Virus record (IMG/VR): IMGVR_UViG_3300013127_000029
Coordinates: 1-24,956 of that record
Source of the DNA: a virus
Reading direction: 5' to 3' (one strand)
Length of the DNA stretch: 24,956 nt
Within the stretch, counting starts at the first letter, position 1. Each line of letters starts with the position of its first letter. Below are positions 1,688-22,329 of this stretch, in pieces. Made by a program: the position numbers and the translations under genes. Below the pieces are notes generated by a model that saw only the letters and a program-made list of their open reading frames with translations, searched no databases and had not been told where the DNA came from.

Positions 1688-2095
1688 ATGAAAAAGGTTG
1701 CGTACCAAAGAGACTTCCTGGACCGAGGCGTGGCGCTACCCGTTGCGCGGCGTGGCGGGACAGACTACGTCCGGGCGCAGGGTGGGCAACTCATCAACAT
1801 GGCGATTCGCCAGATCCTCAACACGGACCGGTACGAGCTGCCGTGGAATCCTGAGTTTGGAACCAATCTCAGACGGCAGAAGAACAAGCTGCTGAATGAG
1901 GACTTCAAGACGTACGTGGTCAGCGAGCTGACCCGGGCGCTTACGACTTTCGAGCCCCGGATTCAGGTCGTTCAAATCTCGGTGCAGGTCCGCGACACGA
2001 CCGCAACCGTTCGTGTAGAATGGCAAGTCATCGATCGTAACGTGCCCGGAAACCAGGTTCTTGTTGGCCCAGATGCCGTAGAGGTCTCGATTTAA
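1688..2095 (+). CDS. Baseplate wedge protein, gp25/gpW family
   Basis: This 135-residue protein belongs to the gp25/GPW family, a conserved component of contractile-tail baseplates that docks the first sheath ring onto the wedge. The diagnostic core is LPWNPEFGTNLRR at about residues 51-63, preceded by the helix G-G-Q-L-I-N-M-A-I-R-Q-I-L-N-T. It is followed by a helix and two beta strands (IQVVQISVQVRDTTATVRVEW) typical of the family fold. Length matches the usual 110-150 residues. The ATG directly follows the previous stop, and its TAA overlaps the ATG of the gpJ-type gene, so the wedge genes are translationally coupled. Confidence 0.9.
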   Translation: MKKVAYQRDFLDRGVALPVARRGGTDYVRAQGGQLINMAIRQILNTDRYELPWNPEFGTNLRRQKNKLLNEDFKTYVVSELTRALTTFEPRIQVVQISVQVRDTTATVRVEWQVIDRNVPGNQVLVGPDAVEVSI

Positions 2096-3666
2096 TGGCA
2101 CTCATCCCACAGCCAATTCTCGATTTCAGCGACAAAGACTTCGCGTCATTGCGATTGCGCTTGCAGGGTCTTGCGCGATCTCTCCATCCCGAATGGACGG
2201 ACTTCAATGACGCCAACTTCGGCAACATCCTGCTGGAGTTGATGGCATTTACCGGTGACGTGATGACGTTCTACCAGGACGCCCAGGCCCGGGAACAGTT
2301 CTGGCCGACCGTAACGCGCCGCATCTCGGCAATACGCCTGGGGCGGCTCATCAACTTCACCATGCCAGGACCGACTCCGGCGACGGGCGAAGTCCGCTTC
2401 CAGCTGCGGGCCGCCCAGGCGACGGACGTGCTCATCCCGGTTGGCACCCGGTTGCGGTCGAGCGACCCGTTGAACCCCCGGCCCTACATCACGACCAACA
2501 CCGATGTCGTGAAGATCCTCGCCGGTAACACGTCGGTCATGGTTCCGGTGGAGCAATCCGAGCGCGTGTCAGGCGAGATGTTCGACTCATCGGGTGGACC
2601 AAACCAGGAGTTCGTGCTGGAACGCCTCCCCTACATGGATGGGTCTGCGGTTGTCACGGCGTCCAACGGTCCGTACACCGTCATCCAGTCATTCATCGAC
2701 GTGCTGTCTGCCAATCCCCGCCGTTTTGTTGAGCTGGTGGACCAGGACGATCGCGCCCACATCCGATTTGGCAACGGCATCCTGGGGGAGATTCCACTCG
2801 GTGCAGTGTCCATCGACTACAAGGTCACGCAGGGTTCCGAGGGAAGCGTGGAAATTGGGCAGTTGAACCGCATCTCGGACCCCATCCTCGACTCCGTTGG
2901 TGCCACCGTCTCTGGCCTCACAGTCACCAACCTCACAGCGATTGCAGGCGGCGCTGACCGCATGACCGTCAGTCAGGCCCGCAGCTTGGCACCCGCGTCG
3001 CTGCGTGCCCTCAACCGCTCTGTCACCCGCCCGGATTTCCAGACCCACGCTGCCGAAGTCTCCGGTGTGGGCCGCGTCGTGATGCTGACCTCCAACGAGG
3101 ACGGCGCCGTCCAAGAGAACTCTGGCCTGTTGCTGGTCGTCGCCCGCGGCGCTCGCTTGGATTCGGGGCTGTTCAAACCTGCCGCGCCATCGCAGCAGTT
3201 GTTGGCCGCAGTGATCAACCAAGTCACGGTCGTGAAGCCCGCGACAATCACGTTCCGTGTGGATGCGATCGGTGCGCCGTTTCTCGATGTGAACCTTTCG
3301 ACGTACGTCCACTTCTCGAATGGCGCCGACAAGGCTGCCACCGCAGAAGAAATCGTCAACGCGCTCGAAGACTTCTTCGCCAGCAACTTGGCGAACGGCA
3401 CCGACAATCCCGCCGTGGATTTCGGCGCCAACATCCTCAACGACCAAGCAGTTCCTGTTGCCGAGATTGCGTGGAGCGACGTCCTCAACGCCATCCGTGA
3501 CGTGAACGGTGTGCGTCGAATTGATGACGGTGACAATGGTTTGCGCCTGAACGGTTTGCGCCAGAGCTTGGTGCTTGGACTGCGTGAGTTCCCCCGTTTG
3601 CGCCAGGTTCAAATCTACGACGCAGCCAACAACACCATCCTTCTCAGCGTGGACGTGGGCGTTTAA
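2095..3666 (+). CDS. Baseplate wedge protein, gpJ/gp6 family (baseplate J-like)
   Basis: This 523-residue protein matches the baseplate J-like family (P2 gpJ, T4 gp6), which forms the baseplate wedge backbone. The N-terminal section (about 1-90) has the family pattern: a D-F-S-D-K-D-F motif, a long helix, then E-L-M-A-F-x-G-D-V-M-T-F-Y-Q-D-x-Q-A-R-E. The hallmark is the strand-turn IRFGNGILGEIPLGA around residues 222-237, followed by a YKVTQGSEGSVEIG strand. The C-terminal half (about 300-520) carries the domain with A-x-S-L-R-A-L-N-R-S-V-T-R-P-D-F and the alternating strand/helix modules of the ring-forming region. Both ends overlap neighbours by TAATG. Confidence 0.9.
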   Translation: MALIPQPILDFSDKDFASLRLRLQGLARSLHPEWTDFNDANFGNILLELMAFTGDVMTFYQDAQAREQFWPTVTRRISAIRLGRLINFTMPGPTPATGEVRFQLRAAQATDVLIPVGTRLRSSDPLNPRPYITTNTDVVKILAGNTSVMVPVEQSERVSGEMFDSSGGPNQEFVLERLPYMDGSAVVTASNGPYTVIQSFIDVLSANPRRFVELVDQDDRAHIRFGNGILGEIPLGAVSIDYKVTQGSEGSVEIGQLNRISDPILDSVGATVSGLTVTNLTAIAGGADRMTVSQARSLAPASLRALNRSVTRPDFQTHAAEVSGVGRVVMLTSNEDGAVQENSGLLLVVARGARLDSGLFKPAAPSQQLLAAVINQVTVVKPATITFRVDAIGAPFLDVNLSTYVHFSNGADKAATAEEIVNALEDFFASNLANGTDNPAVDFGANILNDQAVPVAEIAWSDVLNAIRDVNGVRRIDDGDNGLRLNGLRQSLVLGLREFPRLRQVQIYDAANNTILLSVDVGV

Positions 3667-18456: not shown

Positions 18457-19079
18457 CGTGATTGTGACTCCGGTTTCATTGTGTACCACGCGGTTTCTCT
18501 TCGGAACCAACCCATGGGTCCGAACCGCTTGTTCAGATACGTCACCACACTGTTGTATGGCGAGAACACTCCGTCGATCACTTCGGCCCACTTGCCTGCA
18601 AGGATCCCGTTGGGGTGGACACGCGGATACCACGCGTCGATTTCCTTGGCAACGAAATCGGGTGCGTGCTGCGTGTCGAGGAAAACAAAGTCCAAGTACT
18701 CGGGAACGAAGGACTCGGCAGCCACAAACGTGTCGAGTTCCAGCAAGTCGTGCTGCGGGTTGCTGTGCTCCCGGCCCCGGGCGTAATGGTCGAACACCCG
18801 ACGGAAGTTGTGTTCCCCGTATTGCGACCACACCGTGTAATGCAAATCGCTGATATGGCGACGTGCTCGCGCAGGAATTGAGGTTTGGTCGAAGTTGTCC
18901 ACCATCGTCAACTGGATGTTCTTGTTGCTGTCTCGGATGAACTTCGCAAGTTGCTGCGAAGAACCCCCGAACAAGACCCCCACTTCTGCGAAACGCGCGT
19001 GCATTGGCGCCCGATTCACGACGAGGTTGAAGAACGTGGGACACGTGGCGTAACCAGGGACTCCATCAAGGAACAACAT
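18453..19079 (-). CDS. Class I SAM-dependent methyltransferase
   Basis: This 208-residue protein has a Rossmann-type methyltransferase fold. Motif I is AEVGVLFGGSS (31-41), binding the SAM methionine part. Motif II is TMVDNF (58-63), whose D61 should contact the ribose. D130-F-V-F-L-D135-T-Q-H138 is the motif after strand 4, typical of the Methyltransf_24 group where H/D residues bind metal or substrate. HPNGILAGKW (155-164) is the strand-5 turn, with LAGKW in place of the common aGHD. Small-molecule or sugar O-methylation is typical of this group, for example modification of glycans or nucleotides; the target here is unknown. It overlaps the zinc-finger gene upstream by 14 bases and the MazG-like gene downstream by ATGA. 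Confidence 0.8.
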   Translation of the reverse strand: MLFLDGVPGYATCPTFFNLVVNRAPMHARFAEVGVLFGGSSQQLAKFIRDSNKNIQLTMVDNFDQTSIPARARRHISDLHYTVWSQYGEHNFRRVFDHYARGREHSNPQHDLLELDTFVAAESFVPEYLDFVFLDTQHAPDFVAKEIDAWYPRVHPNGILAGKWAEVIDGVFSPYNSVVTYLNKRFGPMGWFRRETAWYTMKPESQSR

Positions 19080-19470
19080 TCTGCTTGGCTCGCTGAGCAG
19101 TGTACTCCGAACAGATGGCTACGACACGCTCGCAGGTATCTCGATCGAAAAGACCCATATGACAGGCCATGGGATGGATTCGCAGTTGTTTCGCCAGCCA
19201 AGTGTACGCGCGTGATCGGTTGGGGAAGACCTTCGTTTCCCACAGAGGATCAAACGCAGCATGGGCTTTTGTGCGTGCCTCACGTGTCGATGAATCCGCA
19301 GGTGTCCCCAACGGGTCGCCGTCTTCATGCGCGAAGTGGCGACAGCTACAGGTTTCCGTTGTGCAGACATAGAAGTTTTTGGCAGCAAGGAAGAGTACCA
19401 TGACCCCGCCGCAGTCGGGACACGGCAGCGTCCGACGGGTATCCACGGTCATTGACGGAAGCAGGGCCAT
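19066..19470 (-). CDS. DUF3268-like zinc-finger protein
   Basis: This 134-residue protein has an N-terminal zinc ribbon: C17-P-D-C20 and C36-T-T-E-T-C41-S-C43 with a nearby H. The C-terminal part (about 65-120) has T-K-A-H-A-A-F-D-P-L-W, A-Y-T-W-L-A-K-Q-L and C-H-M-G-L-F-D-R-D-T-C-E-R-V-V, which is the pattern of the DUF3268 zinc-finger family found in phages and mobile elements. The biochemical role of the family is not established as far as I know. It overlaps the nuclease gene by one base at 19470 and the methyltransferase by 14 bases, so it is in an operon with both. Confidence 0.75.
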   Translation of the reverse strand: MALLPSMTVDTRRTLPCPDCGGVMVLFLAAKNFYVCTTETCSCRHFAHEDGDPLGTPADSSTREARTKAHAAFDPLWETKVFPNRSRAYTWLAKQLRIHPMACHMGLFDRDTCERVVAICSEYTAQRAKQNVVP

Positions 19471-19877
19471 TACTTTGCGTGCCCGGCAGCAGCAAGCGCC
19501 TCAGCCAAATCCTCTTTGGTAACTGCGCACTGGACGTCCACCAGCCAGCGACCGTACTTCTCTCTTCCGTGCTGCCGCACGAGGACGGTATTGCCGCAGC
19601 TCGTGACCCAATTCACGACGAAGGCCCGGGCAGCCAGTCCGCGGGCTCGGTCCGGGCCGCGCATCTCGGGAGTGTCGAACCCCAGCAGCCGGGTACGTGT
19701 TTCAACGATGATGTCCCACCCGATGTTGATGTAGAGCGCGAAGGTGTCCCCGTCCACAACCCGGTCAACGGTCGCGGGATACCACTCCTGGCTGTCATAC
19801 CGGGGAGGTTGTTTCGCAATGGCCGATCCGCAACACAACAAAGCCAGCACAGTGCTCAGCATCAGTAGTTTTCGCAT
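19470..19877 (-). CDS. Staphylococcal-nuclease (thermonuclease) homologue, exported
   Basis: This 135-residue protein has an N-terminal signal peptide: MRKLLMLSTVLALLCCGSAIA, with cleavage likely after AIA at about residue 21. The SNase core follows: D42-G-D-T-F, then R63-L-L-G-F-D68-T69-P-E71 (catalytic Arg, Ca-binding Asp/Thr, catalytic Glu), R-A-R-G-L-A-A-R-A-F at 77-86, and K-Y-G-R110-W-L-V-D (second catalytic Arg). All key catalytic residues are therefore present, and a Ca-dependent nuclease of the periplasm or outside is expected. Length is normal. Its role might be degrading nucleic acid released in the envelope or DNA of competitors; this is inference. AGGA lies unusually close (three bases) to the ATG. 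Confidence 0.85.
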   Translation of the reverse strand: MRKLLMLSTVLALLCCGSAIAKQPPRYDSQEWYPATVDRVVDGDTFALYINIGWDIIVETRTRLLGFDTPEMRGPDRARGLAARAFVVNWVTSCGNTVLVRQHGREKYGRWLVDVQCAVTKEDLAEALAAAGHAK

Positions 19878-21165: not shown

Positions 21166-21216
21166 AAGACCTGCCAGGGCTCGAACCTGGACAGAGCACT
21201 CCACCAGTGCAGGTCT
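21166..21216 (-). ncRNA. tRNA-like element lacking an anticodon arm
   Basis: Reading leftward: acceptor strand AGACCTG (21216-21210), a small D-like hairpin CACT-GGTGG-AGTG (21209-21197), a CTCTGT linker, a perfect T-arm CCAGG-TTCGAGC-CCTGG (21190-21174) and the fully complementary acceptor strand CAGGTCT (21173-21167). The T-loop matches the TTCRANY consensus. Between the D-like hairpin and the T-arm only six bases remain, so there is no anticodon arm, and no CCA is encoded. The fold could be an RNase P or RNase Z recognition site, or a cis-acting element: its 3' acceptor strand contains the ribosome-binding AGG of the next gene, four bases upstream of which it ends. It might also be a decayed tRNA. 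Confidence 0.55.
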
Positions 21217-21221
21217 ATAGC

Positions 21222-21263
21222 GGACGGCGCCCGGTATACCCAACAGAGCGCCATCCTTTTTTT
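21222..21263 (+). terminator. Strong rho-independent terminator pointing rightward
   Basis: On the plus strand GGACGGCGC (21222-21230) pairs over nine bases (one G-T) with GCGCCATCC (21248-21256), followed by seven T residues (21257-21263). The loop contains the palindrome GGTATACC. In the minus-strand transcript the same hairpin is preceded by an A-run and has no T-run after it, so it should terminate rightward, i.e. antisense, transcription only. No plus-strand gene is seen immediately before it. Confidence 0.55.
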
Positions 21264-21309
21264 ACATCAGCGAACCGCAACACGTTTAAGTCGGTCTTTC
21301 AGCTTTAGA

Positions 21310-21386
21310 CGTGACGTGCTTCCATTACACTACTCGCTCATATTGGAGAGCGAGGCCGGACTCGAACCAGCATTTTCATGTTGGGG
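21310..21386 (-). tRNA. Circularly permuted tRNA gene, Gly-like
   Basis: Reading leftward the 3' half comes first: CCCCAA CATGA AAAT (21386-21372), T-arm GCTGG-TTCGAGT-CCGGC (21371-21355), acceptor CTCGCTC (21354-21348), T73 and an encoded CCA (21346-21344). After four bases (ATAT) the 5' half follows: acceptor GAGCGAG (21339-21333), perfectly complementary, TA, then D-arm GTGT-AATGGAA-GCAC (21330-21316) with A14, GG and A21 in place. U73 with CCA, the D-arm sequence and the C-C-A-A before CATGA suit tRNA-Gly (anticodon NCC). The candidate anticodon stem TCACG/CATGA has one C-A mismatch and C at position 33, so the anticodon is uncertain. A normal-order 5' half upstream was looked for and not found. 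Confidence 0.55.
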
Positions 21387-21473
21387 AAAACCAACGATCG
21401 ATTTGCGGCGTGATGGTTTGTGTAAGTTTGGGAGAATAACTTGAGTCTGAGTCGCCTGTTCAGGTCAGCTTTC

Positions 21474-21535
21474 GCTGTCGCGTCTACCATTTCGCCACCT
21501 CCGCGTACAGTGCGGAGGGAAGGACTCGAACCTCC
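21474..21535 (-). tRNA. Circularly permuted tRNA gene, Leu-like
   Basis: Reading leftward: T-arm GGAGG-TTCGAGT-CCTTC (21535-21519), acceptor CCTCCGC (21518-21512), discriminator A (21511), a six-base linker CTGTAC, then the perfectly complementary acceptor GCGGAGG (21504-21498), TG, and D-arm GCG-AAATGGTAGA-CGC (21495-21480). The 5' half GCGGAGG-TG-GCG with this D-loop is characteristic of bacterial tRNA-Leu, and A73 agrees. The sequence before the T-arm (about 21575-21536) may supply a long variable arm and contains CTCAGAA, a possible CAG anticodon loop, but I could not pair it with the expected stem in the 5' half. No CCA is encoded. The two halves are adjacent in swapped order, the defining trait of permuted tRNA genes. 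Confidence 0.6.
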
Positions 21536-21591
21536 AGGTCTGAACGAAGCGTATCACCTTCTTTCTGAGATTGAGCTTGTCTCCAAAATCG

Positions 21592-22329
21592 TTAGCCGAG
21601 CAGCCAGCCGAGGATGTTGTCACCCACGTTGATGCGTGCCACGTCAGCATTGTTGGCTGTCTCGCGCGCCTTCTTGACGGCGTCAATCAGCCGGTGAATC
21701 TTCGCAACCAAGTCCGTCTTCGCACGCAAGGGGATTGCGCCCGAGTACTTGGTCGTCCGCCAGTGACCAACCGTCACGTCGCGGGTGATGATCTCTGCCT
21801 TACCCGGGTGCTCCGTCGTAGGCTCCAACAAGACGAGCTTGTCCTGAACCTTCTGCGTGCGCACCGTGCGTGCTTCGCGGGAAGCCCACAGGCCGAGCTG
21901 TTCGTTCTTCGTCCAGTCCGTTGCGATGTCGAGTTCCGGCAACGCATTGATGAAGGTCTGGATGTCTACGAGTTCCTTCTCCAAGTACAGGAGGAAGGGA
22001 ACCGGGGCATCCTTCACCAACACAACGCCGTCGATTTCAACGGACGCACGTGCAGTGGGTTGTACGTTGCCGTAGTCCTTGGACGCGACGATGTCCATCT
22101 GCTCGGTGAAGGCATGGCGCATGCTCTGGAGCACACTTGATATGTCGAACTGCACCTTGGTGCGTTCTTCATCCAAGTGTTCACCCTCGGCGTTGACCGG
22201 TTCGTATTGACGTACAAAGCCATTGAAGAGGAGGGGCTTCTTCGTCAGGTGGTGAAGGTCCGTGATCGTCTTCTGCGTACGAGCACGCACTCCCTTTTCT
22301 ACCGCAACTATCTGATTGAGTTTTTCCAT
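21592..22329 (-). CDS. DUF7873-like phage/bacterial protein
   Basis: This 245-residue protein of unknown function closely fits the pattern of a widespread uncharacterised family that I associate with DUF7873: L-N-Q-I-V-A-V-E-K-G-V near the N-terminus, T-D-L-H-H-L-T-K-K-P-L-L-F-N-G-F, then V-P-F-L-L-Y-L-E-K-E-L-V-D-I-Q-T-F (about 110-126) and the C-terminal Y-S-G-A-I-P-L-R-A-K. A helix-rich end (LVAKIHRLIDAVKKARE) follows. The family number is from memory. It has its own sigma70-like promoter, a short leader and a weak AGG site six bases before ATG 22329. The RNA region lies directly after its stop, so both are probably on one transcript. Confidence 0.75.
   Translation of the reverse strand: MEKLNQIVAVEKGVRARTQKTITDLHHLTKKPLLFNGFVRQYEPVNAEGEHLDEERTKVQFDISSVLQSMRHAFTEQMDIVASKDYGNVQPTARASVEIDGVVLVKDAPVPFLLYLEKELVDIQTFINALPELDIATDWTKNEQLGLWASREARTVRTQKVQDKLVLLEPTTEHPGKAEIITRDVTVGHWRTTKYSGAIPLRAKTDLVAKIHRLIDAVKKARETANNADVARINVGDNILGWLLG

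What the first reader, a model, noticed from the sequence alone, without database searches (positions are those of the whole stretch)
21474..21535. Circularly permuted Leu-like tRNA gene in a phage
On the minus strand a complete T-arm (5 bp, TTCGAGT loop), acceptor 3' strand CCTCCGC and discriminator A come first. A six-base linker and the exact complement GCGGAGG, a TG spacer and a tRNA-Leu-type D-arm follow. Acceptor pairing is 7/7, and the canonical conserved bases are present on both sides. The order is 3' half then 5' half, so a linear tRNA would require joining at the anticodon side and cutting in the linker. Permuted tRNA genes are known from some algae and archaea. I do not know of established phage cases but cannot check. 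The anticodon arm is not resolved.
Basis: partly seen in the sequence, partly recalled or inferred. Interest (0 to 1): 0.85.

Follow-up and report, generated by a model that had tools for sequence, protein, structure and literature searches.

The report
Paired phage tRNA-mimic Y RNAs
What looked like a back-to-front tRNA gene in a phage is one of two neighbouring small RNAs of the "Y RNA" type that imitate tRNA, and this pair travels with an uncharacterised protein (DUF7873) through many phages and actinobacteria, a partnership for which I found no description.

Summary
On the minus strand, T-arm + CCTCCGC + linker + GCGGAGG + D-arm is present at 21480-21535 with 7/7 acceptor pairs. Two strict hits occur in the window against 0.025 expected in shuffles. 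The "permuted tRNA gene" reading is not supported. 3'-half-then-5'-half is the known topology of the tRNA-like head of bacterial YrlA-type Y RNAs, which is circularly permuted relative to tRNA. No anticodon loop exists. Element 2 continues into a covarying Y-stem (105 bits, E=7e-27, with a model built without the window). Both elements sit directly behind a DUF7873 gene. In 156 testable DUF7873 loci from viral contigs and bacterial genomes, 146 carry such an element within 600 nt downstream (0 of 780 shuffles). DUF7873 co-occurs with Ro60 across actinobacteria (5 of 6 vs 3 of 192 genomes), yet most phage records examined lack a detectable Ro60 gene. The flanks of element 1 carry an unexplained six-nucleotide "UNA" periodicity. 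Best reading: a DUF7873 ribonucleoprotein module built on two Y-RNA-like tRNA mimics, a new variant of a known kind. No paper I could search describes the DUF7873 link, but the key Y RNA papers were not held.

The parts
21592..22329 (-). DUF7873 (PF25283) gene, 245 aa, directly upstream of both RNAs; unknown function
   Evidence: Pfam E=3.8e-81; AlphaFold model pLDDT 93.4, pTM 0.78; no Foldseek match at E<=1e-3 in PDB or BFVD
21424..21587 (-). Element 1 (type 1): Y-RNA-like RNA with Leu-like permuted tRNA head and flanks carrying hexamer-periodic UNA units
   Evidence: covariance model R2 built without the window: 66.4 bits, E=7.4e-11, full length
21519..21535 (-). Element 1 T-arm GGAGG-TTCGAGT-CCTTC
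   Evidence: sequence
21512..21518 (-). Element 1 acceptor 3' strand CCTCCGC
   Evidence: 7/7 with 21498-21504; covaries in relatives
21505..21511 (-). Element 1 loop ACTGTAC closing the acceptor end (discriminator-like A; no CCA here, though N-CCA in 45 of 111 distinct type-1 relatives)
21498..21504 (-). Element 1 acceptor 5' strand GCGGAGG
21480..21495 (-). Element 1 D-arm GCG-AAATGGTAGA-CGC
21551..21574 (-). Element 1 5' flank, hexamer units UCAAUC UCAGAA AGAAGG UGAUAC
   Evidence: 7 of 8 U/A positions; family-wide period of 6 nt
21427..21450 (-). Element 1 3' flank, units UCAGAC UCAAGU UAUUCU CCCAAA
   Evidence: matches family consensus UCAGAC UCAGAU UAUUGC UCCAGA
21271..21411 (-). Element 2 (type 2): YrlA-like RNA with permuted tRNA head on a Y-stem
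   Evidence: covariance model R1 built without the window: 105.4 bits, E=7e-27, full length; Rfam YrlA 23.8 bits, E=0.021, below its gathering score of 69
21355..21371 (-). Element 2 T-arm GCTGG-TTCGAGT-CCGGC
21348..21354 (-). Element 2 acceptor 3' strand CTCGCTC
   Evidence: 7/7 with 21333-21339
21340..21347 (-). Element 2 loop TCCAATAT, with a CCA after the discriminator position
21333..21339 (-). Element 2 acceptor 5' strand GAGCGAG
21316..21330 (-). Element 2 D-arm GTGT-AATGGAA-GCAC
21372..21411 (-). Element 2 5' strand of the Y-stem, with conserved AUCGA
   Evidence: helices 1 and 3 of A4 covary
21271..21315 (-). Element 2 3' strand of the Y-stem, with conserved CUUAAACGUG

Best explanation
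The locus encodes two small non-coding RNAs of the bacterial Y RNA (YrlA) kind behind a DUF7873 gene. In each RNA the T-arm, the acceptor stem closed by a short loop, and the D-arm fold into a tRNA-like head. The strands leave the head where the anticodon arm would be and form a handle. Nothing has to be spliced: the permuted order is the finished topology of a tRNA mimic. Element 2 carries the Y-stem that in known Y RNAs is held by the ring protein Ro60. Element 1 has a different handle made of six-nucleotide UNA units on both sides of the head. Most likely DUF7873 is the dedicated protein partner, holding at least element 1, and the particle works with Ro60, the phage's or the host's. As in the known Ro60-Y RNA-PNPase particle (RYPER), the tRNA-like head would present or gate RNA for decay or repair. 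Shown here: the head, Y-stem covariation of type 2, linkage of the pair to DUF7873, co-occurrence with Ro60. Inferred: protein binding, and the role in tRNA/RNA decay or repair.
For: Permuted heads with covarying acceptor and T stems. Y-stem of type 2: helices 1 and 3 of A4, not used to select sequences, are 95% and 85% paired, every pair changes on both sides, covariation score of the whole structure 0.816 vs 0.24 shuffled. Window elements match models built without them. 146 of 156 testable DUF7873 loci have a strict element within 600 nt downstream; 0 of 780 shuffles, 0 on the reverse strand, 1 of 454 upstream pieces. Ro60-linked loci carry elements that match both Rfam YrlA (52.1 bits, E=6.5e-9 at best) and R1 (E to 3.6e-13). 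Co-occurrence DUF7873 x Ro60: 5 of 6 vs 3 of 192 Actinomycetota genomes, p=1.4e-7, or 2.8e-6 without the chosen centre; the one control genome that rings, Deinobacterium chartae, is the same for both. L091 has Ro60 and DUF7873 side by side; L196 and L197 hold both, each with its own RNA pair. Known permuted topology of Y RNA: PMC11472068.
Against: Rfam YrlA scores only 23.8 bits for element 2 (gathering 69) and does not report element 1, though Ro60-linked actinobacterial Y RNAs also stay below 69. No Ro60 in the 25 kb window, in 0 of 7 DUF7873 phage records and in only 6 of 29 viral records. Element 1 has no clear Watson-Crick handle in relatives. No expression or binding data. DUF7873 has no recognisable fold. 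The co-occurrence test is not corrected for phylogeny or genome size.
Confidence: 0.85

Rival explanations
1. True permuted tRNA genes: the precursor is cut in the linker and the halves are joined at the anticodon side to give a working tRNA-Leu.
For: Head has all tRNA landmarks, 7-bp acceptor, and N-CCA directly after the acceptor in 45 of 111 distinct type-1 and 34 of 122 distinct type-2 relatives; phage loci often lie in tRNA arrays.
Against: No anticodon loop or conserved anticodon; the strands continue into a covarying Y-stem in type 2. No group I intron match in the region. Acceptor stems differ freely between loci, and the two elements of one locus do not look like two decoding tRNAs. 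The same topology is the mature state in Y RNA.
Confidence: 0.05
2. Ordinary Ro60 Y RNAs: both RNAs simply bind Ro60 (the host's, where the phage has none) and DUF7873 is a bystander or minor accessory.
For: Type 2 resembles Ro60-linked Y RNAs; Ro60 co-occurs with DUF7873.
Against: The ordered pair is behind DUF7873 in nearly all loci, whereas Ro60 has its own separate RNAs in the same genomes; type-1 flanks lack a Ro60-type stem and carry a hexamer pattern.
Confidence: 0.3
3. Decoys: the heads are baits for host tRNA-cleaving defences or tRNA-modifying enzymes, protecting phage translation; the proteins only stabilise them.
For: 44 of 80 viral DUF7873 loci hold tRNA genes, 4.2 per ~8.7 kb, against 0.4 in bacterial loci, where most calls are false. 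Competitive inhibition of an anticodon nuclease by YrlA was proposed for Salmonella (PMC7790460).
Against: The head lacks an anticodon loop; the module is also conserved in bacterial chromosomes, where a defence-escape role is less obvious.
Confidence: 0.2
4. Chance or decayed remains of a tRNA cluster.
For: A third tRNA-like remnant without anticodon arm lies next door (21166-21216).
Against: 0.025 hits expected per window, 2 seen; heavy compensatory change across phages and bacteria.
Confidence: 0.01

Closest known systems
YrlA (Rfam RF02553), bacterial Y RNA-like, partner of Ro60/Rsr
   Same: T-arm, closed acceptor stem and D-arm in circularly permuted order; open end continues into a long stem with a conserved internal loop; occurs in bacteria and phages
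   Different: here a fixed pair of two RNA types follows DUF7873, often with no Ro60 found in the record; acceptor stem 7 bp with N-CCA in many; type 1 has hexamer-periodic flanks in place of a recognisable Y-stem; below the Rfam cut-off
Permuted tRNA genes (red/green algae, Thermofilum; from memory)
   Same: 3' half precedes 5' half with an intervening linker
   Different: no anticodon arm and no sign of an intron or splice motif at the anticodon end
Permuted two-piece tmRNA (alpha, beta, cyanobacterial)
   Same: T-arm and acceptor 3' strand precede acceptor 5' strand
   Different: canonical D-arm with GG, no tag reading frame; Rfam tmRNA models give only 12-14 bits over the T-arm/acceptor stretch
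RYPER (Ro60-Y RNA-PNPase) particle
   Same: proposed type of action: tRNA-like head on a protein-bound handle
   Different: PNPase link not tested; DUF7873 is not part of the described particle

Membership tests
YrlA / bacterial Y RNA | tRNA-like head in circularly permuted order | tested here: met
   both elements, 7/7 acceptor, T-arm before D-arm; order as in the YrlA consensus and 6CU1 (PMC11472068)
YrlA / bacterial Y RNA | long stem formed by 5' and 3' ends, with conserved internal loop | tested here: met
   element 2 only: R1 105.4 bits, stem helices covary
YrlA / bacterial Y RNA | same stem in element 1 | tested here: inconclusive
   flanks conserved in sequence with 6-nt period, little covariation
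YrlA / bacterial Y RNA | score at or above Rfam RF02553 gathering cut-off (69 bits) | tested here: not met
   element 2 23.8 bits, element 1 not reported; Ro60-linked actinobacterial RNAs also only reach 52. So it is called YrlA-like here, not filed in RF02553
YrlA / bacterial Y RNA | encoded near Ro60 | tested here: inconclusive
   none in the 25 kb fragment; 0 of 7 and 6 of 29 relatives' records; adjacent in L091, 8-11 kb apart in L196 and L197
YrlA / bacterial Y RNA | binds Ro60 | not testable with these tools
   needs pull-down
Permuted tRNA gene | anticodon stem and 7-nt loop with anticodon after rejoining | tested here: not met
   type-2 alignment shows stem, then unconserved internal loop, then Y-stem
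Permuted tRNA gene | processing to a joined tRNA | not testable with these tools
   needs RT-PCR/RNA-seq
Permuted tmRNA | tmRNA model match and tag ORF | tested here: not met
   ARAGORN none; Rfam tmRNA models 12-14 bits vs cut-offs 70-84

The most novel reading that the evidence does not exclude
DUF7873 is an oligomeric RNA-binding protein that reads a six-nucleotide UNA code on both sides of a tRNA mimic, one subunit per hexamer, making a new class of tRNA-mimic ribonucleoprotein that phages carry in place of, or to redirect, Ro60.
Probability: 0.3. Interest if true: 0.78.

Novelty: new variant of a known kind. Interest (0 to 1): 0.6.

Why it matters
It removes a false claim (permuted tRNA genes in phages) and puts a testable system in its place. 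DUF7873, a protein family with no assigned function, is tied to a conserved pair of tRNA-mimic RNAs in phages of actinobacteria, cyanobacteria and proteobacteria and in actinobacterial chromosomes, and it co-occurs with Ro60. The role of bacterial Ro60 and Y RNAs is still largely open. A third component and Ro60-free phage versions give a direct genetic handle.

Tried and rejected
Searching IMG/VR with the window protein alone found no confirmed relatives; a broad DUF7873 alignment was too diverse for pattern search. Group I intron / permuted-intron explanation: no Rfam intron match in the region up to E=10. ARAGORN calls of tRNA-Phe/Leu/Ala/Ser starting 24-40 nt after DUF7873 in bacterial loci are false: the anticodons are inconsistent and that pairing does not covary. 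Fold searches of DUF7873: Foldseek top hits are Cas7 (E=3e-3, TM about 0.15, not credible); VIA-align best is TolC (Z 8.4, rmsd 10.7, 5% identity), too weak to use; PDB sequence profile search nothing. Watson-Crick pairing between the hexamer flanks of type 1: little covariation. Blastn of the window against phage records: no match. The primary Y RNA papers (Chen 2014, Wang 2018, the Sim and Wolin reviews) were not held.

Full report
Observation. ARAGORN and Rfam at gathering thresholds report nothing. A strict scanner finds these two hits and no others in the window; dinucleotide shuffles give 0.025 per window.

Lead. A permissive Rfam scan gave YrlA (RF02553) over 21409-21271, full model length, 23.8 bits, E=0.021. 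The alignment shows the YrlA consensus in the order T-arm, stem-loop, D-arm, so permuted order is normal for that family. PMC11472068 states that bacterial Y RNA (6CU1) superposes on tRNAs with a circular permutation. PMC8394870 describes YrlA as a basal stem formed by the 5' and 3' ends plus a tRNA-like domain, with the stem tethering Rsr (Ro60) and the head tethering PNPase.

Relatives. A pattern scan of IMG/VR found two viral contigs with the same permuted order. One of them, L004, has the elements directly behind a DUF7873-like gene, as in the window. DUF7873 (PF25283, window 21592-22329, E=3.8e-81) has homologs in 73 phage records. In all seven first examined, unannotated stretches downstream of the gene hold one or two permuted elements. 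A DUF7873 alignment brought in 80 of 255 viral loci and 80 of at least 394 bacterial genome loci, mostly actinobacteria. 73 of 80 viral and 79 of 80 genome loci have at least one element within 900 nt. With strict criteria it is 146 of 156 loci within 600 nt, against 0 of 780 shuffles, 0 on the reverse strand and 1 of 454 upstream pieces. The usual order is type 1 (Leu-like D-arm, T-arm median 98 nt after the stop codon), then type 2 (short D-arm, median 248 nt). Window elements 1 and 2 are types 1 and 2.

Structure. Type 2 (A4, 37 sequences): 30 pairs, all with changes on both sides, 94.1% of cells paired (shuffled 64.1%), covariation 0.816 (shuffled 0.240; slid versions at most 0.18). T and acceptor stems were selection criteria, so their pairing percentage is not independent. 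The Y-stem helices were not selected for and are 95% and 85% paired. The larger alignment also shows a 5-bp stem at the anticodon-stem position with a 4-nt variable loop. There is no anticodon loop: an unconserved internal loop leads to a 9-bp helix, then AUCGA / CUUAAACG, then a lower helix. Type 1 (A5, 39 sequences) has the head only as covarying structure. The models, built without the window, find element 2 at 105.4 bits (E=7e-27, 21411-21271) and element 1 at 66.4 bits (E=7.4e-11, 21587-21424).

Relation to Ro60. The window (25 kb fragment) and 7 of 7 DUF7873 phage records lack TROVE; 6 of 29 viral records and 14 of 25 bacterial genomes have it. In 198 Actinomycetota genomes, 5 of 6 with DUF7873 have TROVE against 3 of 192 without (p=1.4e-7; 2.8e-6 without the genome chosen as centre; not corrected for phylogeny or genome size). 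Ro60-linked loci carry type-2-like RNAs. In Nonomuraea aridisoli (L196) and a phage contig (L197), Ro60 and DUF7873 lie 8-11 kb apart, each with its own pair. In L091 Ro60 lies just upstream of DUF7873.

Hexamer pattern. The 5' flank of type 1 is a run of U-N-A units every 6 nt. The chance of a second UNA at +6, +12 and +18 is 0.48, 0.32 and 0.26 against about 0.05 at other spacings and in type-2 flanks. At least 7 of 8 positions match in 94 of 116 loci against 9 of 580 shuffled flanks. Flank-to-flank covariation is weak, so a protein-reading register is one explanation; it is not shown. DUF7873 is predicted with high confidence (pLDDT 93.4) but without a credible structural relative.

Conclusion. 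The thing is not a permuted tRNA gene. It is a pair of tRNA-mimic, Y-RNA-like RNAs in a DUF7873 module. Mechanism (inferred): DUF7873 and/or Ro60 hold the handle, and the tRNA-like head presents or gates RNA for decay or repair, or acts as a bait in tRNA-rich phage regions. No paper in the searched library mentions DUF7873, and none was found on permuted phage tRNA genes or on Streptomyces Y RNA with Ro60. The key subscription papers on Y RNAs were not held, so earlier mention cannot be excluded.

Noticed in passing
window 21166-21216, minus strand: Third tRNA-like element in normal order but without an anticodon arm (AGACCTG ... CAGGTCT, 7/7 acceptor, complete T-arm); Rfam tRNA only 16.9 bits (gathering 29).
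   Followed up: partly
window 21222-21262, plus strand: G+C-rich hairpin with a long loop followed by seven T: terminator-like for plus-strand transcripts that converge on the minus-strand RNA pair.
   Followed up: no
L003 (IMGVR_UViG_3300036851_000252) 1-420: Three permuted tRNA-like units in tandem, with conserved flanks GTTGCGTAG..TACTTCA / ACGACTTTNTCTC, in a contig that also encodes Ro60 about 25 kb away; a different array-type Y RNA arrangement.
   Followed up: partly
L101, L117, L130, L102 and others, about 24-40 nt after the DUF7873 stop: ARAGORN calls pseudo-tRNAs (Phe-GAA, Leu-GAG, Ala-AGC, Ser-AGA) made of the type-1 flank plus its T-arm; genome annotations may carry these false tRNA genes.
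   Followed up: yes
window 19066-19470 minus and 19470-19877 minus: DUF3268 zinc-finger-containing protein next to a staphylococcal-nuclease-like endonuclease; plus-strand gene 2095-3666 is baseplate J-like, so the window is probably a contractile-tailed phage.
   Followed up: no
L196 and L197: One genome holding four Y-like RNAs as two pairs, one pair next to Ro60 and one next to DUF7873.
   Followed up: partly
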